From the NCBI GenBank assembly GCA_945881845.1, contig CAMCVN010000006.1:1-64000 (forward strand): a stretch of 64,000 nt of DNA, given 5' to 3'. This document shows, one piece after another, positions 5,005-62,606 of this stretch. The DNA is from Bifidobacterium breve. GTDB taxonomy: Bacteria > Actinomycetota > Thermoleophilia > Solirubrobacterales > Solirubrobacteraceae. The notes under the pieces are model-generated. The model ran no database searches, was not told the origin of the DNA, and saw nothing but the letters and a program-made list of their open reading frames with translations. The first letter of the stretch is position 1, and every line of letters begins with the position of its first letter. The translations under genes were made by a program, and so were the position numbers.

Positions 5005-7173
5005 CTAGCTGAGAGCCTGAGCTGAAGGCAGCCGCTCGAGCGTATCCGTCGTCACGTCGACGCCGAGACTGGCTGCGCAGCTTGGGCAGAAGTGCTCGCG
5101 CGTTACAACGCGCGGCTCCTCAAGACGATCGCGAACGATCATCTCCAGCTGTGCATAGCGCTCAGCAATTGGCGTCTCAACGCAGACAGCCCCGTCACGC
5201 CAGTTGCCATCCGCCTCAGCGAGGCTCTCGTCGCAGGATGCGCATGACCAGCGGCCATCGCTTCGGTGCGTTGAGATGCCGATCAGTGGCGGCGCTTTCA
5301 TCTCTTTGCTCGGCTTGCTGCCGATGCGATCATGGAGAACCTGTTCGCGGCGGGCCGCAGTCGCCTTCTCATCGAGAGCCTGTGAACCGTCGACAACGAC
5401 GCCGTAGATCTGGTTGGCGTGTTCTTCGGTTACGTAGCCGGCGATGATGTCGTCGACAACCTTCGATGGCTCGCGCAGTAGCGGATCGCCGAGTCCGGCG
5501 CCGCCACCAGAGGTCGCAACGAAGACGTCGCCGCGGCCGAGGTTGATATGCGTGATTTTCGAGCGAACAGCCTCTGCGTTGCCCTCAAGCCGTTCCCTCG
5601 TCGGGAGCACACCCGCGTCAATCAGGGCACCAACGTTTGAATCACGAACCGGATGGAACGAACCTCCCGAACCCGGGTAGCCACCGCCAACACCATGCGG
5701 CGGAACTTGAGCGCAAGCGTTGAAACATGGGCCAGCCATGCTGTCGCTGTAATGAATTGCGTAGGCCTGATCTAGCGACTGGCCACCGCGCATCTGCCCT
5801 GGACCGCCCGAGTTTGCGACCAAGCGGCGCCAGAGGAAGAGAACTGGATCGGCGCCCTCGTGGTTCTCGATATCCGGGATCCCGCCGCCGGTCGTGCAGG
5901 TCAAACCGTAAGCGTCCTGACCATCGTTGATTGTCTGCCCGCCACCACCTGAGCCAATCGCGTTGTCGGGGTAGAAGACGACCGAGATGCCATCGTGCTG
6001 GTTGGTGCCAAACAGCGCGTTGCCGGGGAAGCCATCCTGATGCTGACCAGCCAGCCGGCTGCGCAGGACCGGATCATCGCTGAGCGCCAATGCTTGGCAG
6101 ATTACGTCCTTGGCAAGCTTGCAGGCGCGCATTCCAACCTCGGAGTGCGCGTTGCTGACAGGAGCCGGCGGCACGGAGTTCACGATCGTTCCTGGCTCGC
6201 CGAGCTCAACTGTGATCGGCCGCCAAAGCCCGCCGTTGACGGGGAGGTCGCCGTATACGAGCGTCGTCATCAGCCCGGTCATCGCCTGACCGAACATCGG
6301 GCCTTCCGTCGAGTTGACAAAGGCGTCGATCTGCGGCACACCGGAGTAGGTGAAGCGGAGGTCGGTGCCGTCGACTTCGAGGCTGCAGCGCAGCTCGAGT
6401 AGGCGGTCCGGCCCTTCATGGCCGTCGAACTCATTCCAGTCGACCGCCTCGTAGACGCCGTCAGGCATCTTGCCGATCCGGTCGCGCAGTACCTGCTCGC
6501 TGAGGTCCTTGTTGATCTCGCAGTAGGCCTGATGCGCCTCAAGGCCAAACTCGTCGATGATCTGATGGAGCTTGGCCGTCGCCGTGTTGTTCGAGGCGAC
6601 CATCGAGCGGATGTCGTTCAGGACAGCACCTGGAGCGCGAACGTTTGCTGCGATGTAATTCTCCCACTCGGGATCGATAATTCCGTCGCGGATGATCTTG
6701 ATTGGAGGAAAGCGCATTCCCTCCTGCCAAACGTCGTGAGCGCCGGGAGCGTAGCCTGAGATTCCCACGCCTCCGACGTCCAGAACGTGCATGTTGGCGA
6801 ACGACCAGCCGAGGTGCTCGCCGTTGTAGAAGGTCGGCATGATGATCGAAACGTCGCCCTGGTGCATCGCTCCGCCGGTGTGCGGATCGTTGACGATCCA
6901 ACCGTCGCCCGGGTTCAGCTCTGCGCCTTCACGAACGAGTTCGGCGATCACCTGCGTGCCGATCAACGACGAACCGACATGGAAGAGGACGTAGGACGAG
7001 AAGCCGAGGTGTTCCGGCGTGAGATCCATAAGGCAGGTCGAGAAGTCCTTCGACTCCGTAACGATCGGCGAACCAGAGGTCCGCACGAGCGTAATTGCCA
7101 TCTCGTCTGTCAGGTTTTGTAGCGCCTTCCGATGTACTTCGGCGGCGATGACGTCGTAATCAGCAGTGCTCAT
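5005..7173 (-). CDS. Hydantoinase B/acetone-carboxylase alpha-type protein with C-terminal zinc domain
   Basis: 722 residues. Residues 1-600 form a HyuB/oxoprolinase-B domain (DVIAAEVHRKALQNLTDEMA near the start; VNDPHTGGAMHQGD; GGGGQTINDGQ; TSGGGAGLGDPLLREP near the end). About 100 extra residues carry paired cysteines, C644-x-x-C647 and C696-x-x-C699, resembling the separate zinc-bearing gamma subunit of acetone/acetophenone carboxylases. Family enzymes use ATP, through the partner A subunit, to carboxylate ketones or open cyclic amides. It is 8 bases downstream of the matching HyuA gene with an AGGAG ribosome site, so the two form one enzyme. The substrate is unknown; hydantoinase, oxoprolinase or lactamase activity are alternatives to ketone carboxylation. 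Confidence 0.88.
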   Translation of the reverse strand: MSTADYDVIAAEVHRKALQNLTDEMAITLVRTSGSPIVTESKDFSTCLMDLTPEHLGFSSYVLFHVGSSLIGTQVIAELVREGAELNPGDGWIVNDPHTGGAMHQGDVSIIMPTFYNGEHLGWSFANMHVLDVGGVGISGYAPGAHDVWQEGMRFPPIKIIRDGIIDPEWENYIAANVRAPGAVLNDIRSMVASNNTATAKLHQIIDEFGLEAHQAYCEINKDLSEQVLRDRIGKMPDGVYEAVDWNEFDGHEGPDRLLELRCSLEVDGTDLRFTYSGVPQIDAFVNSTEGPMFGQAMTGLMTTLVYGDLPVNGGLWRPITVELGEPGTIVNSVPPAPVSNAHSEVGMRACKLAKDVICQALALSDDPVLRSRLAGQHQDGFPGNALFGTNQHDGISVVFYPDNAIGSGGGGQTINDGQDAYGLTCTTGGGIPDIENHEGADPVLFLWRRLVANSGGPGQMRGGQSLDQAYAIHYSDSMAGPCFNACAQVPPHGVGGGYPGSGGSFHPVRDSNVGALIDAGVLPTRERLEGNAEAVRSKITHINLGRGDVFVATSGGGAGLGDPLLREPSKVVDDIIAGYVTEEHANQIYGVVVDGSQALDEKATAARREQVLHDRIGSKPSKEMKAPPLIGISTHRSDGRWSCASCDESLAEADGNWRDGAVCVETPIAERYAQLEMIVRDRLEEPRVVTREHFCPSCAASLGVDVTTDTLERLPSAQALS

Positions 7174-7181
7174 GTCTCTCC

Positions 7182-9275
7182 TCAGCGCGTTAGGACGTAG
7201 TTCATGTATTCATCGCGCTCCGCCGTGGTTCCGGGGGGCACGTAAATCGTTGTGTCGACCGCATCGATGATCGCCGGTCCTTCGACACGGCTGCCTACGG
7301 TCATGCTTGCATCGTCAATGACCGGGATCTCTTCCCATCGACGCTCGGTCGGAAGGAATACACGGCGCATTTCGCGCGTTAGATCGCTCGACGCTGGCTC
7401 GGCTGATGCCTTGCCAAAGTCCGGACGATCCTGCTGGCCGGTAACCGTGACGCTGTAGTTGATCAGCGAGGCCGGAACACCCTTCCAGGCAGTTCCCTCT
7501 CCGTAAGTGCGCTCATACATGGCGAGGAAGTTGTCAAAGATCTCCTCCGCATCTTCAGCTTTCAGCTCCCGTGCTGGCATCGCCACCGTCAGCTCGTAAG
7601 CCTGACCGTGGAAGCGAATGTCAGCGGTGCGTTGAACGTCAATCTGATCGCGCGTGAAGCCTTCCGTTTCCATCTGCTGGATTGCTTCTTCAACCATCCG
7701 GTCGGCGATCTCGTTGACGCGTACGACGCCTTCTGGCTTCGAAAGATCCCAGCCAACGCCTTGATCGTTACGAAGGACGTAGTCCGCCGAGAGCAGGCCG
7801 AGAGCGCAGAAGACAGAACTGTTCTGCGGGATAACGATCGTCTCGATACCGAGCCGTTCCGCTATCTGCGAAGCGAACAGCGGAAGTGTTCCGCCGTAGG
7901 CTAGGAAGAGGAACTCGCGCGGATCATGGCCCTTGCCGACGCTTACTTCGCGGACGGCGTTGGCCATGTTGACAACGACCAGATCGTGCATCGATGCTGC
8001 AGCGTCCTCTGTCGACCAGCCGAAACGCTCGCCGAACGTGTCGTCAAGGACACCCTTGGAGAGTTCAGGCTGAAGTTGGACACGGCCACCGAGGTAGCGC
8101 TCTGGGTCGATGAAACCAAGCGTGACCATTGCGTCTGTGACGGTCGGCTCTTCTCCGCCGCGTCCCAAGGCCGCAGGCCCAGGAGTTGAGCCGGCGCTCT
8201 GCGGCCCAACCTGTGGAACGCCTCGCTCACTGACCCAACCGATCGAACCGCCGCCAGCGCCGACCGAAACAACGTCGACGATGTTGACGCCGGTCATGAA
8301 GGGGCCGAGCTCAAGGTTCTTGTCGATGTGAATCTCGTTGTCGACAACGATTCCCGTGTCGAAGCTGGTGCCGCCCATGTCTCCGAGCAGCACGCGGGTC
8401 TTACCCATCCGCTTGGCGAGCTCGTTTGAACCGATCGCGCCGGCAGCTGGGCCTGACCCAAGCAGACCGAGGGGGTACTGGCGGGCCTTCTCGAGGCTGA
8501 TTCCGCCGCCGAGCCCTTGGAAGAACGCGAGTCCGCCCTTGAGTCCAGCGGTGCGCAGCTTCTCGTTGAGCGAGGTCAGGTAGACCTCGGCGCGGTCCTG
8601 AACGAACGAGTTCAGGATCGCTGTCGTCCAGCGCCGAGTCTCGCCCTCAACCGGGAAGACACGATGCGACGGCGTGATGAAGATGTCGGGGTAGATCTCC
8701 TTGATCGCCTTCTCGGCAGCGAGCTCGTGCTCGGTGTTGGCGTGGCTCCATAGGAAACAGATCGAAAGCGCATCAACGCCAACCTCCTCAACGAGGTAGC
8801 GCGCCTGTGCCTTGACCTGCTCAAGATCGAGCGGAACAAGGACGGTCCCTGACCAGTCGATCCGCTCGTCGATCTCAACGATCGCGCGGCGATCAACTAG
8901 GTCCGGGACGTTGAGCTGAAGGTGATCGTCAATCTCGGTTGTACGCGGGCCGCCGGCGAGGCGGAAGGCATCGCGGAACCCGTTCGTGACGAGCACACCA
9001 ACACGCGAGCCGCGAAGCTGCGTGATCGTGTTGGTGACAACGGTCGTGCCGTTGATGAAAAGCTTGGTCCTGTCGAGCAGCTCGTCCATGCTGAGCTCGT
9101 AGTTCACGGCGGCAACCTCAACCGCCTCGAGCACGCCGCGACTGAAGTCGTCGTAGGTTGTCAGCGCCTTGCCGCGCTCAACACGGCCGTCGTAGACGAC
9201 CGAAACGTCTGTGTGGGTTCCTCCCACATCGACGCCAATAAATGCTTGTTTTCCGTTTGCCTTCGTGTCAGTCAT
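7182..9275 (-). CDS. Hydantoinase A/acetone-carboxylase beta-type ATPase subunit
   Basis: 697 residues, the normal HyuA length. ATP-binding (actin-like fold) signatures are clear: GVDVGGTHTDVSVVYDG near residue 15, LGDMGGTSFDTGIV mid-protein, then SVGAGGGSIGWV, VGPQSAGSTPGPAALGRGG and EPTVTDA. The C-terminus carries the usual beta-rich Hydant_A_C region. The subunit phosphorylates substrate and/or bicarbonate for the HyuB-type partner encoded 8 bases downstream. The start has a good AGGAG site (AGGAGaaaaATG) and overlaps the stop of the upstream acyl-CoA ligase by 8 bases, so ligase, A and B are translationally linked. That echoes acetophenone carboxylase, whose beta-keto acid product is activated by a dedicated CoA ligase. 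Confidence 0.9.
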   Translation of the reverse strand: MTDTKANGKQAFIGVDVGGTHTDVSVVYDGRVERGKALTTYDDFSRGVLEAVEVAAVNYELSMDELLDRTKLFINGTTVVTNTITQLRGSRVGVLVTNGFRDAFRLAGGPRTTEIDDHLQLNVPDLVDRRAIVEIDERIDWSGTVLVPLDLEQVKAQARYLVEEVGVDALSICFLWSHANTEHELAAEKAIKEIYPDIFITPSHRVFPVEGETRRWTTAILNSFVQDRAEVYLTSLNEKLRTAGLKGGLAFFQGLGGGISLEKARQYPLGLLGSGPAAGAIGSNELAKRMGKTRVLLGDMGGTSFDTGIVVDNEIHIDKNLELGPFMTGVNIVDVVSVGAGGGSIGWVSERGVPQVGPQSAGSTPGPAALGRGGEEPTVTDAMVTLGFIDPERYLGGRVQLQPELSKGVLDDTFGERFGWSTEDAAASMHDLVVVNMANAVREVSVGKGHDPREFLFLAYGGTLPLFASQIAERLGIETIVIPQNSSVFCALGLLSADYVLRNDQGVGWDLSKPEGVVRVNEIADRMVEEAIQQMETEGFTRDQIDVQRTADIRFHGQAYELTVAMPARELKAEDAEEIFDNFLAMYERTYGEGTAWKGVPASLINYSVTVTGQQDRPDFGKASAEPASSDLTREMRRVFLPTERRWEEIPVIDDASMTVGSRVEGPAIIDAVDTTIYVPPGTTAERDEYMNYVLTR

Positions 9276-10986
9276 TTTTCTCCTGGGCCGAACTCGGCGG
9301 ATCTAGATGCTGACTTTGGCGTGCAGCGCCATCGCCGACAACTGTCCGATGTGACAGTCGCTCGGTCATCGACGAAAGCTCCAGCGACGGCTCCTGATTC
9401 GAGAACTGTTCTCGCAGCAGGAACTTCTTTAGCTTCCCGCTAGGCGTGCGCGGAAGTTCATCAATCACCTTGACCGACCTCGGCTTCTTGTAGCTAGCGA
9501 GGCGCTCAGTGCAGTAGTCGATAATCGCTCGCTCATCGACGATCGATCCTGGCGCGGCTTCGACTACGGCGCAGACGATCTCTCCCCATTTCTCGTCAGG
9601 GAGCCCGACGACGGCAGCATCTGAAACAGTCGCGTGCTCGCGCAGGACGGCCTCGATCTCGGATGGGAAGATGTTCATTCCGCCGCTGATGATCATGTCC
9701 CCCTTGCGGCCGGAGATGTACAGATAGCCCTCGTCGTCAAAGCGGCCCATGTCACCTGTGTGCAGCCAGCCATCGACGATCATCTCGTCGGTCATCTCAG
9801 GGTCATCCCAGTAACCCGCCGTGACCGAGGGAGCGCGCACAAGGATCTCCCCATCCCCACCCGGCGCTACCTCGCTGCCATCTAACGCCTCAAGTCGAAT
9901 CTCAGCGTGCATCGAGGCCTTGCCAGCCGATCCCGGTTTGCGGTGCGCGTCCTGCGGCGGGACGAAGGTCACCGTTCCGCCACCCTCGGTGAGCCCATAG
10001 ACCTGAATAAAGTCGGTTGTAGGGAAGACCTCCTGTGCACGACTCGTAGTCGCGGCCGAGACCGGCTGCCCCCCGCACATGATCATCTTCAGAGCACTGA
10101 GATCGAAGTCCTCGAGGTTCGGCAGGCGGAAGATGTCGTAGAGCATCGTTGGCACCCAAAGAACGTGGGTTATCTGATGATCAGCCACATAACGCAGTGT
10201 TTCCCCGGCGTCGAAGCCGCTTGACCGTTCGATATGGACTGTCCCGCCCTGTTGGAGGATGCCCCACGTAAAGTCGTGGCGACCGCCGATGTAATAGAGG
10301 TCGATAACGACGTGGGTGGAACTCTGCGGCCCGAGCTGGAAATCAACTATCTGCTGGATCGAGTTCCAGAGCACCGAGCCGTTCGTCCAGACGACGCCTT
10401 TCGGCTGACCGGTAGTGCCGGATGTAAAGATGATCTCGTGCGGGTCATCGAGCTGACCCGTTCTAGTAGGACGCTCGTTCGAGGAGGATCTCAACAGCTC
10501 CTCGTACGAAAGATCTGCAACTCCGTCGTCGATCGTGATGATCGTCCGCAGTTCGGGCACCTCGCCGGACCGTCGTAGCGCGAGGATCGTAGGTAGAAAA
10601 CGCTCGTCAACAAAGATCGCCTTGGCTTGCGAACGGCGGAGCAGATTCGCCAGCTCGCCCTCGCGCAGGCGCCAGTTAAGCGGCACCATGATCGCTCGCG
10701 CCGCTGCGATCCCTACCTCGATCTCGATGAACTCAAGGCGGTTGACGGCGAGGATTGCAACACGATCCAGCTCCTCCAGTCCCAGACCAACAAGGCCGTT
10801 CGCAATGCGCCGCGAGGCGTCCCTCAGCTCGCCGTAGGTGCGCGAGCTGCCTTCGAAGACGACTCCTGGGCTATCGAGATCCAGGCCGGCACGCTCGAAC
10901 AGGTATGGCATTGAGAGGAAGTCCCAGCGCTGCGAAGCAGACTGGCCCACAAACTTGTAGTTCCGGTTCGGTTCGGGACGTTCCAC
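9268..10986 (-). CDS. AMP-binding acyl-CoA ligase (ANL superfamily)
   Basis: 572 residues. ANL core motifs are intact: the P-loop IIFTSGTTGQPKGVV, VYGLTEGGG (A5), the A7 motif GWLHTGDMGRFDDEGYLYISGRKGDMIISGG, and the A10 lysine in TPSGKLKKFLLRE. After that an unusual tail of about 35 polar residues follows. It makes an acyl-CoA from a free acid via an acyl-AMP. It lies directly upstream of, and overlaps, the hydantoinase A gene and follows the LvaA-like kinase gene on the same strand, so it probably activates the acid made by one of these steps. The acid substrate cannot be read from the sequence. Confidence 0.9.
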   Translation of the reverse strand: MERPEPNRNYKFVGQSASQRWDFLSMPYLFERAGLDLDSPGVVFEGSSRTYGELRDASRRIANGLVGLGLEELDRVAILAVNRLEFIEIEVGIAAARAIMVPLNWRLREGELANLLRRSQAKAIFVDERFLPTILALRRSGEVPELRTIITIDDGVADLSYEELLRSSSNERPTRTGQLDDPHEIIFTSGTTGQPKGVVWTNGSVLWNSIQQIVDFQLGPQSSTHVVIDLYYIGGRHDFTWGILQQGGTVHIERSSGFDAGETLRYVADHQITHVLWVPTMLYDIFRLPNLEDFDLSALKMIMCGGQPVSAATTSRAQEVFPTTDFIQVYGLTEGGGTVTFVPPQDAHRKPGSAGKASMHAEIRLEALDGSEVAPGGDGEILVRAPSVTAGYWDDPEMTDEMIVDGWLHTGDMGRFDDEGYLYISGRKGDMIISGGMNIFPSEIEAVLREHATVSDAAVVGLPDEKWGEIVCAVVEAAPGSIVDERAIIDYCTERLASYKKPRSVKVIDELPRTPSGKLKKFLLREQFSNQEPSLELSSMTERLSHRTVVGDGAARQSQHLDPPSSAQEKND

Positions 10987-11070: not shown

Positions 11071-12102
11071 TCACCAGTCCATGATGCCGGCGAGATCTTG
11101 CCGTATGCCAGGCAGCACGAATCGGGTCCAGGCGAGACGAATGTCGGTCGTTCGATGCTCGGAATAAATGCGCAGCCCTGTCGTCATGATCGCGACCAGC
11201 ATCAGCGCACCAACGGCGGAGAAGGTCCTGACGACTTCAGGATCAAGCGGTCGGCCTGTCAGCTCGCTGTAGCGCTCGGCAAACCACTCGTGGTCGGCGA
11301 CAGCGTTCAGCAATTCCGAGCCCGGAGTCGTGAACTTACCCCCGTGATAATTGAGTGACATGTAGCCAATGTCGAAGCGCGGATCTCCGACATGGGAGAG
11401 TTCCCAGTCAAGGATCGCGCTGATCCTGCCGTCCTCGATCAAGCAGTTCCCGATCCGGTAATCACCGTGGACCAGGGCGGGCTCAACGGGGTCTGGCTCG
11501 TGCGCCCGCACCCAGCGGTAACTCTCATCGATCACCGGGTCGCGAACGATGCGATTCTCCTCGTACACACCCTGCCAGTGGTCGACGGTCTCGAGGAAGC
11601 TCCTCGGCGTGGCGGCCTCGGCCGCGCGGCCGGCATCGATCTGGTGAATCGCAGCGAGGTACTTAACGTGATCCTCGGCAATGCCTCGGTCGCCGTCCCA
11701 GTCAGCTTGGAGCTCAGCTCTATCACGACCGCGCCAAACGTTGATCGCCTTGCCGGGAAGGCGATCCATCACGAAGAAGGGACCGTCAAACGGCGTGTCC
11801 TCGTCCGCAACAAAGCCGTGAACGGCCGGGGTCGGCAGCGATTCCGGGACGAGCAACTCGAATACGCGAAACTCCTGGCCGAGGTCGGTATCCAATGTCG
11901 AGCCCTGAGGGCGAGCCCGCACGACGCACGAGAGTTGCTCGTCGCCGTCTTTGATCTCAGCAATGTAGGAGTGACGCGACCAGCCACCTTGCAACTGCTC
12001 CAAGTAGGTCACTTGCGCGTCGTCGCTGACCGATCCAACCGCACGCATGCAAGCGAGCAGCGCCTTGGCCTTGGGTTCGTCGATGTCGTGATGGTCGGCC
12101 AT
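11071..12102 (-). CDS. LvaA-like phosphotransferase (probable 4-hydroxyacyl-CoA kinase)
   Basis: 343 residues with an aminoglycoside-phosphotransferase (APH) kinase fold. GGWSRHSYIAEI replaces the P-loop, HGDYRIGN is the catalytic loop and DWELSHVGDPRFD the metal-binding DFG-like motif. This clade includes LvaA of the Pseudomonas putida levulinate pathway and the kinase domain of human ACAD10/ACAD11, which phosphorylate the 4-hydroxyl of 4-hydroxyacyl-CoAs. Three bases upstream is a small LvaB-like gene, and the same run encodes an ACAD10/11-type dehydrogenase. That makes a 4-hydroxyacyl-CoA kinase role more likely than antibiotic resistance. A paralogue with the same partner is at 60213-61229. 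Confidence 0.82.
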   Translation of the reverse strand: MADHHDIDEPKAKALLACMRAVGSVSDDAQVTYLEQLQGGWSRHSYIAEIKDGDEQLSCVVRARPQGSTLDTDLGQEFRVFELLVPESLPTPAVHGFVADEDTPFDGPFFVMDRLPGKAINVWRGRDRAELQADWDGDRGIAEDHVKYLAAIHQIDAGRAAEAATPRSFLETVDHWQGVYEENRIVRDPVIDESYRWVRAHEPDPVEPALVHGDYRIGNCLIEDGRISAILDWELSHVGDPRFDIGYMSLNYHGGKFTTPGSELLNAVADHEWFAERYSELTGRPLDPEVVRTFSAVGALMLVAIMTTGLRIYSEHRTTDIRLAWTRFVLPGIRQDLAGIMDW

Positions 12103-12105
12103 CGG

Positions 12106-12483
12106 CTATTCGGGAATCGCCGCTAGCGCAGCGACCTCGCGGTCAGCCATCTCACGCAGGATGCGATGGATCTCAGGTCGGCGCGGATCATCTGCTGGCA
12201 TCTGCTCGAAGAGGAGGGACAGCTGCTCGCCAACAGCGATGCTGCTACCGGCCTCAGCCATCTGCGCTTCTTGATCTCCGAGCACCGGCCCCAGCTCGCC
12301 CTTAATCCAAGTCAGCATCGCCGGAGCTGCGACGTTCTCGGCAGCCAGCAGCCGCGCGACGCTATAGGCCGACAGAAGCTGGCTGCGCTCATAGTCCTCA
12401 AGCGCCGCGCCACGATCGGCAGCAGCTCGCAAGACGCTGCCGATGCCAATCAGAAGCTGGTCGGTCCTCAGAGCGTTAAACAC
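12106..12483 (-). CDS. LvaB-like small partner of the kinase (DUF6285-like)
   Basis: About 125 residues, mostly helical. It has no enzyme motif but a conserved block, EDYERSQLLSAYSVARLLAAE. A second family member at 61226-61672 has DDWESGQLLSVYSATRHLAAE, and each sits directly upstream of an APH-type kinase. In P. putida, LvaB is a small protein of unknown structure required with LvaA for 4-hydroxyvaleryl-CoA kinase activity; I infer the same role. I choose the GTG at 12483 because from there (VFNALRTDQ...) the protein aligns without gaps to the start of its paralogue (MWNPLSPSE...). The reading frame extends to a TTG at 12495. The DUF6285 assignment is from memory and unverified. Confidence 0.68.
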   Translation of the reverse strand: MFNALRTDQLLIGIGSVLRAAADRGAALEDYERSQLLSAYSVARLLAAENVAAPAMLTWIKGELGPVLGDQEAQMAEAGSSIAVGEQLSLLFEQMPADDPRRPEIHRILREMADREVAALAAIPE

Positions 12484-12531: not shown

Positions 12532-12930
12532 CTAGGCCGGCGCCAAGCGCCGTGGCAACTTAACCAGCGCTTGCAAGACTTCGCGATCATCGACCGTGCA
12601 GCGTGCCATCACAACTACGACGGCCGCAAACTGGAGCACTTCAACGGCGCTGCAGACGACCGTCGAACCGATCGGAACCGGCCCGCGGAACGCAACGTCG
12701 ACCGTCACTCCCGCGGGCAACCCTTCGCAGCCCAGCCACGTCGCGACCGCTTCATATACGGCCTGGAGCGCGATCGGGCCGTGCGCGACGACAACACCGA
12801 AAGGGCCGGCGGCAGCGTAATCGGGATCTACGTGCAGCGGGTTGTAGTCGCCGGATACCTCTGCGTACATCGAAATTGCGGCCCCGTCTACGAGGTGGCG
12901 AACCTCAGGGAATGGCTTGAGCGTGGTCAT
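12532..12930 (-). CDS. MaoC-family hotdog hydratase, catalytic half
   Basis: 132 residues forming one hotdog domain. It has the (R)-hydratase-2 motif SGDYNPLHVDPDYA followed by VAHGPIALQAVY, with the catalytic Asp and His present. The enzyme would hydrate an enoyl-CoA to a 3-hydroxyacyl-CoA or act in reverse. It overlaps the upstream FAS1-like half by 4 bases, and the two almost certainly form a heterodimer equal to a double-hotdog hydratase. A paralogous pair is at 19727-20553. The last codons happen to encode a strong GC hairpin. It sits between the LLM oxidoreductase and the LvaB-like gene. Confidence 0.87.
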   Translation of the reverse strand: MTTLKPFPEVRHLVDGAAISMYAEVSGDYNPLHVDPDYAAAGPFGVVVAHGPIALQAVYEAVATWLGCEGLPAGVTVDVAFRGPVPIGSTVVCSAVEVLQFAAVVVVMARCTVDDREVLQALVKLPRRLAPA

Positions 12931-13346
12931 GCGTCTCGAATCGTCCAGTCGACCAATGCCGCGACGACTCCCTCGTTCTCGATTGTGAATCGAAAAGTTG
13001 TGTAAAGCCTGCCGTCACGTTCGTCCTTGTCGGATACGACTACGGCGACGTCGAGCGTGCACCCCGACGGTATCTCTGCTTGGACGTCGAAGCTCTGCCC
13101 CAAGAGCACTCCGCCTGGAGGGATCCCTGACAGTGCTCGGCGGAGGACGCGCAGCGTAACCAACGGCAGAACCCCGGCAGGGGCAACCGCACCGGCCCGC
13201 TCGGTGCCAAGCTCGCCGCGCAGGACGCTGCTGACCGCGGCGCTCAACGGCTCAACGAACGGTCCAAACTCCTGCCCGGCATGAAGGTCTTGGTAGCGCG
13301 TCTGCGAAAGCAGCGGAACCCCATCGAGCGTGTCGCCCTGCATCAC
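12927..13346 (-). CDS. FAS1-like/MaoC N-terminal hotdog protein, non-catalytic half
   Basis: 139 residues with a hotdog fold of the FAS1-like dehydratase type (YQDLHAGQEFGPFVEPLSAA near the start, then LGQSFDVQAEIPSG). The D-x-x-N-P-x-H hydratase motif is missing, so it should serve as the structural or substrate-binding half for the catalytic partner encoded 4 bases overlapping downstream. Its closest relative in the window is 19727-20152, with the same partner arrangement. The start codon overlaps the stop of the LLM gene in an ATGA, which shows tight operon coupling. Confidence 0.78.
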   Translation of the reverse strand: MMQGDTLDGVPLLSQTRYQDLHAGQEFGPFVEPLSAAVSSVLRGELGTERAGAVAPAGVLPLVTLRVLRRALSGIPPGGVLLGQSFDVQAEIPSGCTLDVAVVVSDKDERDGRLYTTFRFTIENEGVVAALVDWTIRDA

Positions 13347-14365
13347 TCCGCCCCCGGGGCGCAGGCCTCGATCAGACCAAGCGCATTTTCGCGGACTCGT
13401 TCAGGATCGAGTCGGAAACTGGGCGTATAGAGGATCACGTGGTCGAGCAGACCGTCGTAGCGGCGCAGCGCTGAACGCACATCCGAAGGTGTCCCAACAA
13501 CAGCCAGCTGATCGATCATCTCGTCGGGGACCGCCGCAACCATCGCATCTAGGTCGCCGCGTCCAAACGCTTCACGAATAGCCTCGCCAGCAGCCGCGAA
13601 CCCAGTCTTCTCAAGAATCGGGGCGTAGGTCTTCGCCGACGCGTAGAAACCGATCTGCGCAGCGACTTCCCTGCGTGCCTGCTCAGCATCCTCATGCACG
13701 GCAGCGAATACGAGGCTGGCTACAGCGACCTCGCTCGCGTCGCGACCCGCATGGGCGGCGCCACGTTCGATCGCTGGAAGAACGACATCTTCGAGGTAGC
13801 CGGTGGTGAAAAGCGTATGACCCAAGAGCCCGTCCGCGACGCGTCCGGCAACCTCGATCATGCGTGGATTGACTCCCGCGGTGTAGATCGGAATCCGCTC
13901 CCGCAGCGGCGGCAGCAAGTCCCCCGTTGGGGCGATGTGGAGCCTGTAGAACCGGCCATCATGGTCGATCGGCCCTTCGTGCAGTCGCCACAGCCTCCGT
14001 ACTAGAACAACCAGCTCTTCCATCCGAACCGCGGGCGCGTCCGGGTCCTGCCCGTGCCAGTCGGAGATCATCCGACGCGTCCCGTTGCCTAGCCCAAGTA
14101 CGAAACGACCATCCGAAATCTCGTCAAGATCCCGGGCCTCAGCCGCAAGCGTTAGTGGGGTGCGCCCAACGCCGTAGGCGATCGCCGTTCCAACCCGGCA
14201 GCGCTCTGTCCGCGCCGCAAACTCGGCGATCGTGATCGTCGCCGAGCGGCTGTAGAGCTCCGGCGCCCAGGCACTACCGAGACCGGCGATGTCAGCGGCG
14301 ACGGCAACGTCGCTCATCGATCGGACCGAAGTCCCCTGCGTCTCGATGCCGATAGTTGGGACCAT
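13343..14365 (-). CDS. LLM class F420/flavin-dependent oxidoreductase
   Basis: 340 residues. The TIM-barrel luciferase-like features are AARTERCRVGTAIAYGVGRTP, DEISDGRFVLGLGNGTRRMISDWHG and PIYTAGVNPRMIEVAGRVADGLLGHTLFT. The last is typical of F420-dependent members. I place the start at the ATG at 14365 (MVPTIGIETQG), the normal N-terminal beta strand. An open frame continues upstream into the crotonase gene with a low-complexity, Arg-rich translation that is not real. It is closely related to 59188-60219 (shared GNGTRRMISDWHG and YTAGVNPRMIE), which sits beside the second LvaAB pair. It could be a reductase, dehydrogenase or a type II Baeyer-Villiger-like oxygenase. Confidence 0.87.
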   Translation of the reverse strand: MVPTIGIETQGTSVRSMSDVAVAADIAGLGSAWAPELYSRSATITIAEFAARTERCRVGTAIAYGVGRTPLTLAAEARDLDEISDGRFVLGLGNGTRRMISDWHGQDPDAPAVRMEELVVLVRRLWRLHEGPIDHDGRFYRLHIAPTGDLLPPLRERIPIYTAGVNPRMIEVAGRVADGLLGHTLFTTGYLEDVVLPAIERGAAHAGRDASEVAVASLVFAAVHEDAEQARREVAAQIGFYASAKTYAPILEKTGFAAAGEAIREAFGRGDLDAMVAAVPDEMIDQLAVVGTPSDVRSALRRYDGLLDHVILYTPSFRLDPERVRENALGLIEACAPGAE

Positions 14366-14369
14366 CGGC

Positions 14370-15179
14370 CTAGCCGCTCGTGAACTTCGGTGCGCGCTTT
14401 TCGCGGAACGCTTCGAGCGCTTCGCGGAAGTCGTCGCCGCGAGTCGCCAGAGTCTGCCCGCGGTTCTCAACCTCAACCGCCTGGGTCAACGATCCGGCGT
14501 CGACGTTGGCGTTCAGCACGCGCTTCGAAAGCATCACGCCAAACGGCGTGTTCGAGGCGATCTGCGCAGCCATCTCGAACGCTTCTTCGAGCAGCTGGTC
14601 GGCCGCGACGACACGATTGACCAGACCGATTGCCGCTGCCTCCTCGGCATCGACAAACCGCCCTGTGAACATGATCTCGGCGGCGTGCCCGAGACCGACG
14701 ACGCGCGGCAGCGACCATGAAACGCCTACGTCACCAGCGGAAAGACCAATCCGAACAAAGGCTGCGTTGAAACGGGCTTCGGTCGAAGCGATGCGGATGT
14801 CTGCAGCCAGCGCAAGTCCGAGCCCACCTCCGGCTGCAGCTCCGTTGACCGCAGCGATCACCGGCTGTGGCAGCTCGTGGAGCTTGACGAATGCGCCTGC
14901 CCAATGCTGCTGACCGAGCATCATCTCGAGCGCCGTCATGTCGGGAAGCGTCATCGCTTCGTCGAGATCCAGGCCAGAACAGAATCCTTTTCCGGTCCCC
15001 GTGATGACGACTGCCCGAGCCGACGAATCGACCATCAGCTTGCCGGTCAGGTCGTGAATCTCGTCGAACATCTCGAACGTAATCGCGTTCATCTGCTCAG
15101 GACGGTTGAGTGTGATTAGGACGACCCCGTCGCGCGGGCGTTCGACCAGCAATGTGCGGTAATCGTTCACCGCTACCAC
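14370..15179 (-). CDS. Crotonase-family protein (enoyl-CoA hydratase/isomerase)
   Basis: 269 residues. The CoA-binding/oxyanion motifs are GKGFCSGLDL and NGAAAGGGLGLALAADIRIAS. The two glutamates of classical hydratases are not at their usual places: GGGLGLA has Gly in place of the first Glu, and the second region reads AAFVRIGLSAGDVGVSWSLPR. That sequence is common in actinobacterial EchA-type proteins of isomerase or unknown activity. It starts at a GTG that overlaps the stop of the upstream dehydrogenase. Co-transcription with an ACAD10/11-type enzyme and LvaAB suggests a step on the 4-hydroxyacyl-CoA route, but which reaction it catalyses is open. Confidence 0.88.
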   Translation of the reverse strand: MVAVNDYRTLLVERPRDGVVLITLNRPEQMNAITFEMFDEIHDLTGKLMVDSSARAVVITGTGKGFCSGLDLDEAMTLPDMTALEMMLGQQHWAGAFVKLHELPQPVIAAVNGAAAGGGLGLALAADIRIASTEARFNAAFVRIGLSAGDVGVSWSLPRVVGLGHAAEIMFTGRFVDAEEAAAIGLVNRVVAADQLLEEAFEMAAQIASNTPFGVMLSKRVLNANVDAGSLTQAVEVENRGQTLATRGDDFREALEAFREKRAPKFTSG

Positions 15180-16402
15180 GCGACCATTGAAGTGCTCGGT
15201 TCAACTTTGCCGAGTTCGATCCGAGCGATCACCTGTTTGTGGACCTCGTCGGCTCCGTCGCCGATTCGAAGCATCCGGTTGTACCGCGCCATTCCAGCCA
15301 GCGGAGTGTCCTCTGAGACCCCTGCGCCACCCCAAACCTGCATCGCGCGATCGACAACGTTGAGGGCCATCGTCGGTACGACCAGCTTCGTAATCGAGAG
15401 TTCCTCGCGAGCCTCGCGGTTCCCGACCTGATCGAGCTTCCACGCTGCGTACGCAGTCACCAAACGAGCTTGGTCGATCTCAGCCCTCGACGTCGCGATG
15501 AAGTCCTGAACGAACTGTCGCTCCGAGAGCATCGTGCCGAACATCTCGCGCGACTTGGCGCGCTGGCACATCAACTCAAGCGCACGCTCGGCCACGCCGA
15601 TGCAGCGCATGCAGTGATGGATCCGCCCTGGCCCGAGGCGGTCCTGAGCGATCTTGAATCCGCTCTGACGGGCACCGAGCGTGCAAAGCTCAGCCGGCAC
15701 GCGGCAATCGTCATAGGAGATCTCCCAGTGCCCAGGCCCTGCTGTGTGACCATGGTTGGAGAGTGGCCGAACGAGATTGAACCCGGGGGTATCTGTCGGG
15801 ACCAGGAGCATTGTCGCGCGCGAATGCCTTGGAGCATCGGGGTCGGTGACCGCCATCACAATTGCGACTGACGCACCAAGAGCGTTCGTCGTCCACCACT
15901 TGCGGCCATTGATGACCCAGTCAGAGCCGTCGAGTACGGCGCTGCAGGCAAGCCCCGTCGGATCGGAACCGGCCGTATCGGGCTCGGTCATCGAATAGCA
16001 GCTGCGAATCTCCCCCTCGAGCAGCGGATAGAGCCACCGGTCACGCTGATCGTCGGTTGCGTGCTCGACCAGAATCTCCATGTTCCCAGAGTCCGGAGGC
16101 TGGCAGTTAAAGGCGTACGGAGCGACGATCGTCGCGCGGCCCATCTCCTCGGAGAGAGCGCCGTATTCGACATTGGTCAGACCTGGTCCGAACTCCTCGT
16201 TAGGCAGAAAGAGGTTCCAGAGACCCTCCGCTTTCGCCTTCGCCCTGAGCTCAACAAGAATCTCGGGAAAGGCTGTCTGCTGATCGACCTCTCGGTCAAG
16301 CGCCGCCTCGGCCTCACGTTCGTTCGGGTAGATGTGCTCGTCCATGAAGGCCCGAACGCGCTCAAGAAGCTCCTTGCAGCGATCACTCTGTTCAAAATCC
16401 AT
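15173..16402 (-). CDS. ACAD10/ACAD11-type acyl-CoA dehydrogenase (LvaC-like)
   Basis: 409 residues. It matches the dehydrogenase half of ACAD10/11: FNCQPPDSGNMEIL, SCYSMTEPDTAGSDPT, INGRKWWT, and then RLGPGRIHHCMRCIGVAERALELMCQRA and QVWGGAGVSEDTPLAGMARYNRMLRIGDGADEVH. The catalytic Glu of ordinary ACADs is replaced by Asp (IGDG), as I recall for this clade. In animals this domain is fused to an APH kinase and processes 4-phospho-acyl-CoAs. In P. putida the separate LvaC has that role. Here the kinase is a separate gene in the same run (11071-12102). It overlaps the crotonase gene by 7 bases. Confidence 0.9.
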   Translation of the reverse strand: MDFEQSDRCKELLERVRAFMDEHIYPNEREAEAALDREVDQQTAFPEILVELRAKAKAEGLWNLFLPNEEFGPGLTNVEYGALSEEMGRATIVAPYAFNCQPPDSGNMEILVEHATDDQRDRWLYPLLEGEIRSCYSMTEPDTAGSDPTGLACSAVLDGSDWVINGRKWWTTNALGASVAIVMAVTDPDAPRHSRATMLLVPTDTPGFNLVRPLSNHGHTAGPGHWEISYDDCRVPAELCTLGARQSGFKIAQDRLGPGRIHHCMRCIGVAERALELMCQRAKSREMFGTMLSERQFVQDFIATSRAEIDQARLVTAYAAWKLDQVGNREAREELSITKLVVPTMALNVVDRAMQVWGGAGVSEDTPLAGMARYNRMLRIGDGADEVHKQVIARIELGKVEPSTSMVAW

Positions 16403-48606: not shown

Positions 48607-48608
48607 GC

Positions 48609-50714: not shown

Positions 50715-51481
50715 GATCCTGTCCTGCTCCCTCCGTTGACACTTAGGTACTCCCCGGTAACGAAATCAGAGCCTGGGGAGACGAGGTAGAGCACGGCGGC
50801 TGCGATGTCATCCGGCAGCCCGTGCTCTCCTTGCTTGCCATGGCGATGAAGTGGAATGTCGGCTGCAAGGCCGGCGATCGCTTCGTCGTCGAACTGGTCG
50901 TGGATGTCAGTTCGGATGAAGCCAGGGTTGATCGCGTTCACGCAGATCCCGAACTCGCCAAGGTTGCGCGCCAAAGAGACGGTCAGCCCTAGAACTGCTC
51001 CCTTCGAAGCGGCGTAGGCAGGGTTCGTTGTCGGACGACCTTGTTGCGCCGCGAGCGAACCGATGTTGACGATCTTGCCGTAGCGGCCTTCGCGCATATC
51101 GGGAAGGCAGGCGCGGATGCACCAGAAAGTCCCGGACGAGTTGACGCGGAAGTGGCGCTCCCAGTCCTCATCGGTTACATCCCATGGAGCGACTGCGTTT
51201 ACGACGCCGGCAACGTTGACGAGGATCTCGATCGGACCGAGCGCGGCACGCGTCTGAGCAGCAGCGTCGTCGACCGCAGCCGAATCGCCGATGTCGACCG
51301 CAATTGGAAGCAGCTCGCCATCGACGGTGCTGATCGCCCGGGCAGCAGCAACGAGGGGCTCCTCCTTGACGTCCCACATCGCGACCTTGGCCCCCTCGGC
51401 GTGGAGCAGCTTCGCCGTGACGCGTCCGAATCCGCCAGCAGCGCCGGTTACAACCGCGACTTTTCCATCAAGTTGACCCAT
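50711..51481 (-). CDS. SDR family oxidoreductase inside the carboxylase-like locus
   Basis: 256 residues. VVTGAAGGFGRVTAKLLHAEGAKVAMWD is the cofactor site, NVAGVVNA the NNAG-like turn, NIGSLAAQ the Ser region and YAASKGAVLGLTVSLARNL the catalytic Tyr/Lys. The end reads FVTGEYLSVNGG. It sits between two hydantoinase-like sets, 4 bases after the fused A-B gene. It may make the ketone substrate from an alcohol, as 1-phenylethanol dehydrogenase does for acetophenone carboxylase, or reduce the keto product. Confidence 0.92.
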   Translation of the reverse strand: MGQLDGKVAVVTGAAGGFGRVTAKLLHAEGAKVAMWDVKEEPLVAAARAISTVDGELLPIAVDIGDSAAVDDAAAQTRAALGPIEILVNVAGVVNAVAPWDVTDEDWERHFRVNSSGTFWCIRACLPDMREGRYGKIVNIGSLAAQQGRPTTNPAYAASKGAVLGLTVSLARNLGEFGICVNAINPGFIRTDIHDQFDDEAIAGLAADIPLHRHGKQGEHGLPDDIAAAVLYLVSPGSDFVTGEYLSVNGGSRTGS

Positions 51482-51485
51482 CTAG

Positions 51486-55520: not shown

Positions 55521-55532
55521 AGGATCGCGCGC

Positions 55533-55892
55533 CTAACGCGCCTTCGAAAGAGTCTCAGGATCAAGTCGCCACTCGAGCATGATCGGGTCTCCGTGCTGCT
55601 GAACGTTGACGGCAATCAGCAGAGCGCAGCTAGGGCAGAAGAACTGACGCGCAACGAGCCGCTCCGTCATACCGACCGAGTTGAGCGCACTCAGGTCGGA
55701 GATTGACAGCTCCTTAAGCACGGCCCCAAGCTTGGGATCGTTCTCAATTCCCCCGTAACGATGCCCACACTCAGAGCAGTGGATCGACCATCTCGATTCA
55801 TCGTCCGCGTTTCTCATCAAGACAAACGCGTCGCCCACCGTCGGCGCGCGATCCGGCTCCACCTCGCTCTGCTGTTGCTCCAAGTCATTCAT
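55533..55892 (-). CDS. Small zinc protein, acetone/acetophenone carboxylase gamma-like
   Basis: About 119 residues with two cysteine pairs, C39-x-x-C42 (HCSECGHRYG) and C86-x-x-C89 (FFCPSC). Spacing and the FCPSC sequence match the C-terminal modules of the hydantoinase B proteins at 5005-7173 and 46285-48606. It looks like the stand-alone gamma subunit (AcxC/ApcB type) for the fused A-B protein encoded 12 bases downstream. The ATG at 55892 is chosen; a longer frame begins at 55925 and the nearest AAGGAG is further away than usual. I assign the family by cysteine pattern and context rather than strong sequence identity. Confidence 0.75.
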   Translation of the reverse strand: MNDLEQQQSEVEPDRAPTVGDAFVLMRNADDESRWSIHCSECGHRYGGIENDPKLGAVLKELSISDLSALNSVGMTERLVARQFFCPSCALLIAVNVQQHGDPIMLEWRLDPETLSKAR

Positions 55893-55983
55893 TCGTAAGT
55901 CGCTTCTCCTTAACGGGCAGCCCACGACAGGCGGTTAGTCGAACCTACCCGCGCACCCTGGGCGGCGGCGACTGGCCGTTGCG

Positions 55984-57597: not shown

Positions 57598-57624
57598 CCA
57601 AACAGGCTCGGCGTGCTAGGCAAA

Positions 57625-57654
57625 CTGGCGCTTTCGCCAGCCACTCAGGGATCC
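57625..57654 (+). repeat. Hairpin plus ACTCAGGGATCC element, copy 2
   Basis: CTGGCG-CTTT-CGCCAG (57625-57640), then ACTCAGGGATCC (57643-57654). It matches 327-370 in the AACTGGCGCTT-x-CGCCAG stem and in 11 of 12 bases of the second block, but with 2 instead of 16 bases between. It lies in the 78-base divergent region between the ligase and phosphatase genes. Confidence 0.4.
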
Positions 57655-60219: not shown

Positions 60220-61229
60220 TTCATCAACCTCACCATGTCGTCTCGGAGACCCGGCAATGAGTAGCGGGCCCAAACCATTCGAAAGTCATCCGTCTTGCCG
60301 TTGGCGTGCATCCAAACTGCAGTTACCTGAGTTGCTACAAGCATCATGATGCTAAGCAGCTGGAACGGGCGCAGCGACTCCACCTCTACCGGGTTCCCGG
60401 TTAGCGAGCCGTAGCGCTCGAGGAACCAAGCCTCGTCAGCGAAGGTACCCATCAGTTCGGCGCGCCGCCGCAGGTGTTTGCCTGCCGACCGCTCGAGGAC
60501 CAAGTAGCCGAGATCGAACCGTACGTCGCCGACGTAGACCAACTCCCAGTCAAGCACCGCCGTCAGCCGCCCGTCCGCCACCAGCGTATTGCCGATCCGG
60601 TAGTCGCCGTGAACCAGTCCCTCGCGCTGATCCTTCGGTTGGTTGGCGAGCAACCAGTCGAACCCCTCCTCAAAGATCGGGTCACGCACCAGCTTGCGCT
60701 CGTCGTAGACCGCCTTCCACTTGGCAACGACATCGAGGTACGAAAGCCGCTGAATCCTGGCGGGCATCGCGGTCACATCGAGCTTGTGGATCTCAGCGAG
60801 CGTCTCGACCATGTCGTTGGCGACACCGCGCGAGCCATCCCAATCCTCGGCAAGCCGCTGCTGGTCGTCGCGGCTATAGATGTTCGACGGGCTGCCGGGA
60901 AGGAACTCCATCACGAAGAACTGGCCGCCGAAGGGAGTCTCAGGCGAGAGTTCTATCCCTTGCACCCGGGGAGTCGGCACCGACGTGGTATCGAGCGCCT
61001 CGTAGACCTGGTACTCGAGCTCGAGTTCGGTGTCGAGCAAGGCGCCCGGTGGGCGGACGCGGACTACGTGCCTACTTTCTGAGCCATCAACGGCGCGGAT
61101 CCGAGCGATGTATGTGTGGCGTGACCAACCGCCTTGAATCTGCTCTAACTCTTCGCCACGAGCGCCCGGCGCTAACTCGCCGGACCCTTCGAGAACGCGG
61201 ACGACCTCTTCGAGCTTGACCTCGGTCAT
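60213..61229 (-). CDS. LvaA-like phosphotransferase, paralogue
   Basis: 338 residues. IQGGWSRHTYIARI, the catalytic loop LVHGDYRIGNTLV and VLDWELVYVGDVRFDLGYL are present. These match 11071-12102 and the APH-type kinases LvaA and ACAD10/11-N. Its start overlaps the LvaB-like gene stop by 4 bases, so the two should be made together. It probably phosphorylates a 4-hydroxyacyl-CoA; other small hydroxyl substrates are possible. Unlike locus 1, no ACAD10/11-type gene is next to it. Confidence 0.82.
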   Translation of the reverse strand: MTEVKLEEVVRVLEGSGELAPGARGEELEQIQGGWSRHTYIARIRAVDGSESRHVVRVRPPGALLDTELELEYQVYEALDTTSVPTPRVQGIELSPETPFGGQFFVMEFLPGSPSNIYSRDDQQRLAEDWDGSRGVANDMVETLAEIHKLDVTAMPARIQRLSYLDVVAKWKAVYDERKLVRDPIFEEGFDWLLANQPKDQREGLVHGDYRIGNTLVADGRLTAVLDWELVYVGDVRFDLGYLVLERSAGKHLRRRAELMGTFADEAWFLERYGSLTGNPVEVESLRPFQLLSIMMLVATQVTAVWMHANGKTDDFRMVWARYSLPGLRDDMVRLMKW

Positions 61230-61672
61230 GGCTCGACCGGGCCTTCGATCGCGTCAGCAAGCAGCCGAACTTCCAGCTCAACTGCACGGGCCAGCGCAAC
61301 GTGGATCTCCGCTCGAACGTGCTCCGCTGAGGTCGAACCGTCAACTCGGACAAGATCCAGCGCTTGGCACGCGATCTCGGCAGCCTGACGCGAATCGTCC
61401 ACGCCTTCCAGCAGTTCGGCAAGTTGGCTCAGGCGCGCTGCCAGCTCCGTCTCGTCGGTGGACGAGCGAAGCGCTGCAGCAAGGTCGCCAGTCAGCTCGC
61501 CGATGTGAGGCTCAACCGCGCCGACCTCGGCAGCAAGGTGACGGGTCGCGCTGTAGACCGAGAGCAGCTGGCCGCTCTCCCAGTCGTCGAGTGGCTCCTC
61601 ACCTCGAGCGGCATCGCGAACTGGACCGCCCATCGCAGCAATGACTTCAGATGGGGAGAGCGGGTTCCACAT
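61226..61672 (-). CDS. LvaB-like small partner of the kinase, paralogue (DUF6285-like)
   Basis: 148 residues, alpha-helical and acidic, no enzyme motif. Residues 28-49 contain DDWESGQLLSVYSATRHLAAE, aligned without gaps to EDYERSQLLSAYSVARLLAAE of 12106-12483. The rest is less similar and about 20 residues longer. It overlaps the LvaA-like gene and so repeats the order small protein, kinase. I infer a kinase partner or activator role as for P. putida LvaB; the family link is from memory and pattern. Confidence 0.68.
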   Translation of the reverse strand: MWNPLSPSEVIAAMGGPVRDAARGEEPLDDWESGQLLSVYSATRHLAAEVGAVEPHIGELTGDLAAALRSSTDETELAARLSQLAELLEGVDDSRQAAEIACQALDLVRVDGSTSAEHVRAEIHVALARAVELEVRLLADAIEGPVEP

Positions 61673-61712: not shown

Positions 61713-62606
61713 CTACTGGCCACTCGAACGCTGTTCGAACTTCGGTTCGTGAACGAGCGGGAACGACGCAGGCATGTCCGCGCTGACTGTCATCGGGAAG
61801 CTCGGCGGCCGCTTCTCAAGGAACGATGCCGCACCCTCTGCGGCGTCGGCCGCCGGGCCGCGCTCAGCAATGTAGACCGACTCCATCCAGTGAGCGTCCA
61901 TCGGGTGTTGAGCGCCAGCCATGTTCCAGAGCAGCTGCCGGTTGATAGCGACGGAGACAGGGGCGCTGTCAGAGATCAAACTCTCAGCCATCTCACGTGC
62001 CGCTGGCATCAGCGCTTCGGAGCTGTAGAGCGAATGCACCAGGCCAGCGCTGAGTGCTTCTTCAGCATCGAAGATCCTCCCGCTGAGCGACCACTCGAGC
62101 GCCTTGCTGATACCAACGGCGCGCGGAAGGAACCAGCTCGAGGCGGCGTCCATGCAAATTCCGCGACGGCTGAAGACGAAGCCAAAACGTGCGCTATCGG
62201 CAGCCATCCGAATGTCCATCGGCAGCGGGAATGTCGCGCCAAAGCCGACACCCACTCCGTTGATCGCTCCGATGATCGGCTTCAAGCAGCTGAACATTCG
62301 AACGGCGATCAAACCGCCGCTGTCGCGAGGGATGTCGCCTTCCGCGATCTCCTCAGTTCCGCGTTCACGAGCGCGTTGCATGACGTCGAACCCGTCCTGC
62401 TCGGAGAGGTCAAAACCGGCGCAGAAAGCTCGACCATTTCCGGTCACGATCACTGCTCGAACCTCATCGTCCTGATCGACGCGATCCCAGATCCCGAGCA
62501 GTTCGCGCTCCATCGCAGCATCCAGTGCGTTGAGCTGGTCGGGGCGGTTGAGGGTGATCGTCGCGATCGCGTCCTGAACCTCGTAGGTGATCGTCTCGTA
62601 TGACAT
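61713..62606 (-). CDS. Crotonase-family protein of locus 2
   Basis: 297 residues, slightly long. GRAFCAGFDLSEQ is the oxyanion loop. NGVGVGFGATFPLPMDIRMAADSARFGFVFSRRGICMDAASSWFLPRAVG shows that neither hydratase glutamate is at its usual place. It has a C-terminal tail of about 30 residues beyond SFLEKRPPSFP. It is the first gene of the minus-strand run that continues to the LvaAB-like pair and LLM gene. By context it acts on the same CoA ester, but the reaction, isomerase or atypical hydratase, is unclear. Confidence 0.85.
   Translation of the reverse strand: MSYETITYEVQDAIATITLNRPDQLNALDAAMERELLGIWDRVDQDDEVRAVIVTGNGRAFCAGFDLSEQDGFDVMQRARERGTEEIAEGDIPRDSGGLIAVRMFSCLKPIIGAINGVGVGFGATFPLPMDIRMAADSARFGFVFSRRGICMDAASSWFLPRAVGISKALEWSLSGRIFDAEEALSAGLVHSLYSSEALMPAAREMAESLISDSAPVSVAINRQLLWNMAGAQHPMDAHWMESVYIAERGPAADAAEGAASFLEKRPPSFPMTVSADMPASFPLVHEPKFEQRSSGQ

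What the first reader, a model, noticed from the sequence alone, without database searches (positions are those of the whole stretch)
11071..12483. LvaB-like small protein and APH-type kinase pair, locus 1
An APH-type kinase is preceded by a small helical protein whose motif E-x-QLLS-x-YS-x-x-R-x-LAAE recurs at the second kinase locus. The pairing matches LvaA/LvaB, the two-protein 4-hydroxyvaleryl-CoA kinase of P. putida. The small partner has no assigned structure or mechanism, so two divergent examples help to define its conserved surface.
Basis: partly seen in the sequence, partly recalled or inferred. Interest (0 to 1): 0.7.

Follow-up and report, generated by a model that had tools for sequence, protein, structure and literature searches.

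The report
Kinase with distant LvaB-like partner
Two gene pairs in a bacterial genome each encode an enzyme that probably phosphorylates fatty-acid-like molecules, together with a small helper protein that looks like a very distant cousin of a known helper, which suggests that such helpers are older and more varied than described.

Summary
A 125-aa helical protein (12106-12483, minus strand, GTG start) lies 3 bp upstream of an APH-type kinase (11071-12102). A second such pair lies at 60213-61672. The small protein is not an LvaB/DUF6285 family member: no Pfam hit, no BLAST similarity, reversed gene order, two LvaB hallmark residues absent. Profile-profile comparison supports remote homology: score 30.4 against a maximum of 17.1 in 100 shuffles and 13.7 in 35 decoys. 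An invariant Glu is shared. Of 18 distinct small genes (Solirubrobacteraceae-like genomes, Sciscionella, haloarchaea) the kinase is directly downstream of 14, one gene away from 3, not found near 1. In the tree, kinases with an upstream small gene, with downstream DUF6285, and without a partner separate into three groups. Locus 1's operon encodes an ACAD11/LvaC-type acyl-CoA dehydrogenase with the full 4-phosphoacyl-CoA elimination signature. This supports a hydroxyacyl-CoA kinase, most likely 4-hydroxy. Locus 2 and the haloarchaeal loci lack that enzyme nearby, so their product's fate is open. Activity and physical interaction are untested. I call it a new variant of the LvaAB kind.

The parts
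12106..12483 (-). small partner protein, locus 1 (W1), 125 aa, GTG start, remote LvaB relative
11071..12102 (-). APH-type kinase, locus 1 (W1k), 343 aa, HGDYRIGN and DWE catalytic motifs
15173..16402 (-). ACAD11/LvaC-type acyl-CoA dehydrogenase (probable 4-phosphoacyl-CoA eliminase)
15605..15640 (-). RLGPGRIHHCMR: positions of mouse ACAD11 R626, R631, H634, R637
   Evidence: numbering from PMC12440821 passages
14370..15179 (-). enoyl-CoA hydratase family protein of the operon
13343..14476 (-). LLM (luciferase-like, F420-type) oxidoreductase, longest ORF; the true start is probably inside
12927..13346 (-). small ORF between LLM and MaoC genes; no Pfam hit (resemblance to FAS1-type dehydratases is recalled, not shown)
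12532..12930 (-). MaoC-like hydratase
9268..10986 (-). AMP-forming acyl-CoA ligase
7182..9275 (-). hydantoinase A-like protein, nearest NCBIfam models caprolactamase alpha and acetophenone carboxylase (below cut-offs)
5005..7173 (-). hydantoinase B-like protein with C-terminal acetone carboxylase gamma-like domain
61226..61672 (-). small partner protein, locus 2 (W2), 148 aa
60213..61229 (-). APH-type kinase, locus 2 (W2k), 338 aa
59188..60273 (-). LLM oxidoreductase, locus 2
61713..62606 (-). enoyl-CoA hydratase, locus 2

Best explanation
The pair is a two-protein hydroxyacyl-CoA kinase that works like LvaA/LvaB. An AMP-forming ligase makes a hydroxyacyl-CoA, most likely 4-hydroxy. The kinase phosphorylates the hydroxyl with ATP, and the small four-helix protein is its dedicated partner. 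At locus 1 the ACAD11/LvaC-type enzyme then removes phosphate to give an enoyl-CoA for beta-oxidation. Shown by sequence: the pair, its co-occurrence and near-constant linkage, catalytic kinase residues, the eliminase signature, and a statistically supported distant relation of the small protein to LvaB. Inferred: physical complex, acyl-CoA substrate, 4-position, and the partner's role (stabilising the kinase C-lobe or completing the acyl-CoA site).
For: Kinase: HGD-N-D motifs aligned to ACAD11 D220/N225/D240; best PDB relatives include ACAD11. Eliminase in the operon: ACAD11 chains at E about 1e-108 against 5.5e-44 for the next family, with R626/R631/H634/R637/D753 equivalents. A 78-100% identical copy is present in 5 of 5 genomes with a locus-1-type kinase, G000 included. 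Co-occurrence: of 11 genomes compared, 7 have both gene families in equal copy number (2, 1, 1, 1, 3, 2, 1) and 4 have neither. Linkage at 18 distinct small genes: kinase directly downstream in 14, one gene away in 3, not found in 1. Tree: 17 of 17 upstream-small kinases form one group, support 100. Homology to LvaB: hhalign score 30.4 against shuffled maximum 17.1 (0 of 100) and decoy maximum 13.7 (0 of 35). LvaB itself was reported as pulled down with LvaA and needed for growth on levulinate (PMC6692424 passages citing Rand 2017).
Against: No DUF6285 hit. hhalign probability for the W1 family alone against LvaB is only about 5%; it reaches 55% only after haloarchaeal relatives are merged in. 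ACAD11 R176, modelled as contacting CoA, falls at a gap in W1k. No eliminase-type ACAD lies in the window near locus 2 or in the fetched 13.5 kb beyond, and the three haloarchaeal ACADs examined are ordinary ones with a catalytic Glu. Related kinases have no small partner at all, and P. citronellolis lacks lvaB at its lva locus (PMC6692424), so a partner is not required for this chemistry in general. The read-through model of the pair failed (pLDDT 56, pTM 0.49).
Confidence: 0.6

Rival explanations
1. The kinase acts on a hydroxyacyl-CoA but not at the 4-position, or on a non-CoA intermediate of the Hyu ring-opening or carboxylating pathway; the linked eliminase at locus 1 serves another kinase.
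For: Locus 2, its relatives and the haloarchaeal loci lack a nearby eliminase. Hydantoinase/caprolactamase-like genes accompany both loci and hydantoinase genes accompany three of the haloarchaeal loci. The own genome has another ACAD11-type enzyme on C5 and a third kinase on C20.
Against: At locus 1 the eliminase is 79-82% identical and in the same gene order in four operons (window, L094, L095, L101). The catalytic motifs align with the ACAD11 kinase.
Confidence: 0.25
2. The small protein is not an LvaB relative but an unrelated four-helix protein that independently became a kinase partner; the weak profile match reflects a generic helical pattern.
For: hhalign probability 5% for the family alone; no Pfam hit; gene order reversed; LvaB hallmark R45 and P114 not shared.
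Against: The merged profile scores about ten standard deviations over shuffles and above all 35 decoys drawn from dehydrogenase and kinase alignments; the alignment is in register from the N-terminus and pairs the invariant E49 (18 of 18) with LvaB E46 (28 of 28).
Confidence: 0.25
3. The small protein is a scaffold or regulator linking the kinase to eliminase, hydratase or ligase (substrate hand-over), not a catalytic partner of the kinase.
For: Solo kinases exist without it; mammalian ACAD10/11 carry kinase and dehydrogenase domains in one chain (PMC12440821 and PMC11342911 passages).
Against: Copy number and linkage follow the kinase, also where no eliminase is nearby; kinase-DUF6285 fusions in the other arrangement point to direct kinase contact.
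Confidence: 0.15

Closest known systems
LvaA/LvaB, 4-hydroxyvaleryl-CoA kinase of Pseudomonas putida (LvaB = Pfam PF19802, DUF6285)
   Same: APH-type kinase plus a small partner encoded next door; LvaC-type enzyme in the operon (locus 1); distant profile similarity of the partners, shared invariant Glu.
   Different: Partner gene upstream instead of downstream; no DUF6285 match; kinases in a separate clade; LvaB hallmark Arg45 and Pro114 not shared; the operon has Hyu, LLM and MaoC genes.
ACAD10/ACAD11 kinase and dehydrogenase domains (mammals)
   Same: Kinase catalytic residues; full R-R-H-R plus Asp signature in the dehydrogenase.
   Different: Separate chains here; a small partner gene is present; ACAD11 R176 aligned to a gap in W1k.
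Solo APH kinases of related genomes
   Same: Same Pfam family; ACAD11-type dehydrogenases in the same genomes.
   Different: No small partner gene of either kind within the fetched flanks (16 loci).

Membership tests
LvaB / DUF6285 (PF19802) | match to the Pfam model above its cut-off | tested here: not met
   no match for W1, W2 or the relatives scanned; LvaB itself E 4.8e-24
LvaB / DUF6285 (PF19802) | detectable profile-profile similarity | tested here: met
   weak for the family alone (20.5 vs shuffled max 19.4), clear when merged with haloarchaeal relatives (30.4 vs 17.1); probability only 55%
LvaB / DUF6285 (PF19802) | conserved R45-E46 pair and P114 (LvaB numbering, 28 of 28 in my set) | tested here: not met
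   only the Glu has an invariant counterpart (E49)
LvaB / DUF6285 (PF19802) | gene directly after the kinase gene | tested here: not met
   kinase upstream of DUF6285 in 27 of 30 loci and in the lva operon; opposite order here
LvaB / DUF6285 (PF19802) | binds the kinase and is needed for its function | not testable with these tools
   needs experiment; the model of the joined pair failed
4-hydroxyacyl-CoA kinase (LvaA, ACAD10/11 kinase domain) | APH family with catalytic HGD-N and DWE residues | tested here: met
4-hydroxyacyl-CoA kinase (LvaA, ACAD10/11 kinase domain) | LvaC/ACAD11-type eliminase encoded alongside | tested here: inconclusive
   met at locus 1, not found near locus 2 or the haloarchaeal loci
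4-hydroxyacyl-CoA kinase (LvaA, ACAD10/11 kinase domain) | phosphorylates 4-hydroxyacyl-CoA | not testable with these tools
   needs assay
ACAD11/LvaC eliminase (ORF 15173-16402) | R626, R631, H634, R637 and catalytic D753 equivalents | tested here: met
   ordinary ACADs in the same search lack them

The most novel reading that the evidence does not exclude
The upstream small proteins define a separate, ancient partner class of acyl-CoA kinases shared by bacteria and haloarchaea. In locus-2-type and haloarchaeal operons, which lack the known eliminase, the kinase-partner pair makes a phosphoacyl-CoA that is used by a different, undescribed downstream step.
Probability: 0.25. Interest if true: 0.75.

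Novelty: new variant of a known kind. Interest (0 to 1): 0.5.

Why it matters
LvaB was reported as essential for levulinate growth in P. putida (PMC6692424 passages), yet I found no described mechanism for it; the two ACAD10/11 papers do not name it (word searches of both texts). Three kinase clades that differ by partner (upstream small protein, downstream DUF6285, none) turn the partner's role into a comparative question. The clade-specific kinase residues (W41, L131, G255, K256, L264, W273, F274, R322, W325, G332) suggest an interface in the C-lobe, and the invariant Glu of the partner suggests one contact (inference). Natural kinase-DUF6285 fusions supply constructs for structure work.

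Tried and rejected
Single-protein searches with W1 in Pfam, NCBIfam and PDB sequences found nothing usable. LvaB also has no PDB relative (best E 0.014 to unrelated capsid proteins). Foldseek with the W1 model gave no match at E <= 0.001; small helix bundles match many things weakly, so I draw nothing from it. Weak hits in G178 and G154, G574, G013, G042 and G031 and C11 of the own genome were dropped as short or inside long unrelated frames. Marginal Pfam hits (HTH_Tnp, Methyltransf_24) were rejected as below cut-offs. ACAD11 CoA-contact arginines as a membership test were inconclusive: R176 is gapped and my offset for R86 is unsure. First joint alignments A4 and A6 misplaced small-protein rows on the kinase and were not folded. 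The joint fold of A7 failed. The phylum scans scored only a few first-look candidates per genome, so rarity outside the family is uncertain. L067 (small gene, no kinase within 2.5 kb) and L021/L094 (an LLM gene in between) are exceptions to adjacency. In the larger tree the L067 locus gave no kinase row, and L087 and the Rhodococcus kinase are long branches. From the DUF6285 set, 3 of 31 rows (L043, L049, L056) were dropped before the profile comparison.

Full report
Observation. ORFs and sequence place the kinase at 11071-12102 and the small protein at 12106-12483 on the minus strand, 3 bp apart; the finding's end coordinate is the GTG start. The second pair is W2 61226-61672 and kinase 60213-61229, overlapping by 4 bp. 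The shared motif reads E-x-x-QLLS-x-YS-x-x-R-x-LAAE. Small proteins: 32% identity over 103 residues; kinases: 44% over 339. The window is contig C6 of a 2.07 Mb, 92.8% complete genome; a same-family genome holds the Conexibacter locus L011 (shared sequence), so it is Solirubrobacteraceae-like (inference).

Distribution and linkage. With the family profile, genuine matches (E below 1e-10) lie in 6 of 399 genomes of the class, G000 included; two weaker genomes were dropped. A relatives scan (5 of 61 with any hit) adds G015. In the phylum scan only G000 of 396 has a genuine match, one weaker genome was dropped, and few candidates per genome were scored. Three named records came in through the kinase: Sciscionella, Conexibacter and an actinobacterial MAG; the last two are the same sequences as in G399 and G015. 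Six haloarchaeal plasmids carry a related small gene. Over 18 distinct small genes, a kinase of this clade lies directly downstream in 14, one gene away in 3 (Sciscionella L009, L097, L094), and was not found within 2.5 kb in 1 (L067). In 11 genomes compared, copies match: 7 have both (2, 1, 1, 1, 3, 2, 1 copies), 4 have neither; the next kinases drop from E 1e-113 to 1e-46 or weaker.

Comparison with LvaB. A plasmid with an annotated lva operon (L014) supplied LvaA and LvaB. LvaB is Pfam DUF6285 (E 4.8e-24). DUF6285 occurs in 43 of 399 class genomes; in 27 of 30 fetched loci a kinase lies just upstream on the same strand, two of them partial matches. At least four of these are single frames of kinase, Pro/Ala-rich linker and DUF6285 (L031, L032, L035, L038; a fifth, L046, is unsure). 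W1, W2 and relatives do not match DUF6285. Profile-profile: small family (12) against haloarchaeal proteins (6) 41.5, shuffled maximum 17.5 (0 of 150); small family against DUF6285 (28) 20.5, maximum 19.4 (0 of 150); haloarchaeal against DUF6285 25.1, maximum 19.0 (0 of 150). Merged (18) against DUF6285: probability 55%, E 1.2e-4, 30.4; shuffles maximum 17.1 (0 of 100), decoys maximum 13.7 (0 of 35). The alignment runs in register and pairs invariant E49 (18 of 18) with LvaB E46 (28 of 28); R45 and P114 of LvaB have no invariant counterpart. I read this as remote homology with moderate confidence.

Kinase tree. In 43 rows the 10 bacterial upstream-small kinases plus 2 haloarchaeal ones are one side of a branch (100/99) and the 26 DUF6285 kinases including LvaA another (99/99). 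In 59 rows: 17 upstream-small (100), 26 DUF6285 (99), 14 of 15 solo kinases together (quick method). Neither partner was found near 16 solo loci. Ten positions are invariant or nearly so in the upstream-small kinases and rare in the others; eight of these ten lie between residues 255 and 332.

Operon and chemistry. ORF 15173-16402 matches ACAD11 chains at about 1e-108, the next family at 5.5e-44 (an unnamed-function bacterial ACAD, 4hr3, scores as high as ACAD11), and holds RLGPGRIHHCMR and the Asp of IGDG. PMC12440821 (passages) names R626, R631, H634, R637 and D753 of mouse ACAD11 as substrate or catalytic residues. Four operons (window, L094, L095, L101) share dehydrogenase, hydratase, LLM, small gene, kinase, ligase, HyuA and HyuB; L098 shares the part from the small gene on, and its genome G346 has a 78% identical eliminase on another contig. 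Locus-2-type loci share hydratase, small gene, kinase and LLM (window, L010, L096; L099 without the hydratase at its contig edge) with no eliminase nearby. Haloarchaeal dehydrogenases beside the pair are ordinary (three examined). So the 4-hydroxyacyl-CoA reading is strongest for locus 1.

Literature. From passages: lvaA, lvaB and lvaC mutants of P. putida do not grow on levulinate, LvaB was pulled down with LvaA, and P. citronellolis lacks lvaB at its locus (PMC6692424, citing Rand 2017, which was not held). A purified LvaA ortholog of Burkholderia pseudomallei replaced the ACAD10 kinase part in vitro; the text searched does not name LvaB (PMC11342911, passages). PMC12440821 does not name LvaB either. 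No paper in the library holds 'DUF6285'. The full-text searches for LvaB and lva operon (listings) showed no paper on a structure or mechanism of LvaB; one search listed 20 of 24 papers, most about unrelated uses of the letters.

Verdict. Observation confirmed; interpretation partly supported: it likely works like LvaAB, the partner is not a DUF6285 member (tested), and it represents a reversed-order, separate-clade variant. Main gaps: no biochemical or physical evidence, no complex model, unknown substrate, and an unexplained downstream step at locus 2.

Noticed in passing
L031, L032, L035, L038 (unnamed class genomes): Single open frames of APH kinase, Pro/Ala-rich linker and DUF6285 (LvaB) domain: natural LvaA-LvaB-type fusions.
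   Followed up: partly
L073 833-1537 and 1458-2690 (G000:C20): The genome's third kinase of this kind has no small partner; a HAD-like ORF (name by recall) follows it, recalling the HAD-kinase part of ACAD10.
   Followed up: partly
window 5005-9275 and 46285-55925: Three hydantoinase A/B sets with acetone carboxylase gamma-like pieces; HyuA/B of locus 1 score best against caprolactamase models but far below cut-offs, so the substrate is unknown.
   Followed up: partly
window 63189-63632 and L072 1152-2846: Split B12-dependent acyl-CoA mutase (large and small parts) next to locus 2, running past the window's end.
   Followed up: partly
L009 4907-5905; L029/L097 between small gene and kinase: A protein of about 330 aa of unknown kind (lipocalin-like only by recall) is inserted between partner and kinase in Sciscionella and in genome G314.
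   Followed up: no
L017 4945-5466 (Rhodococcus opacus plasmid): A 173-aa hypothetical protein without family hits overlaps the end of an APH kinase gene: possibly a further partner type.
   Followed up: no
L068 2992-5284 (Halomarina plasmid): Two kinase-like stretches in tandem after one small gene.
   Followed up: no
window 57529-58341 (+): Histidine phosphatase superfamily gene close to locus 2; P. citronellolis also has such a gene beside lvaA (PMC6692424 passages).
   Followed up: no
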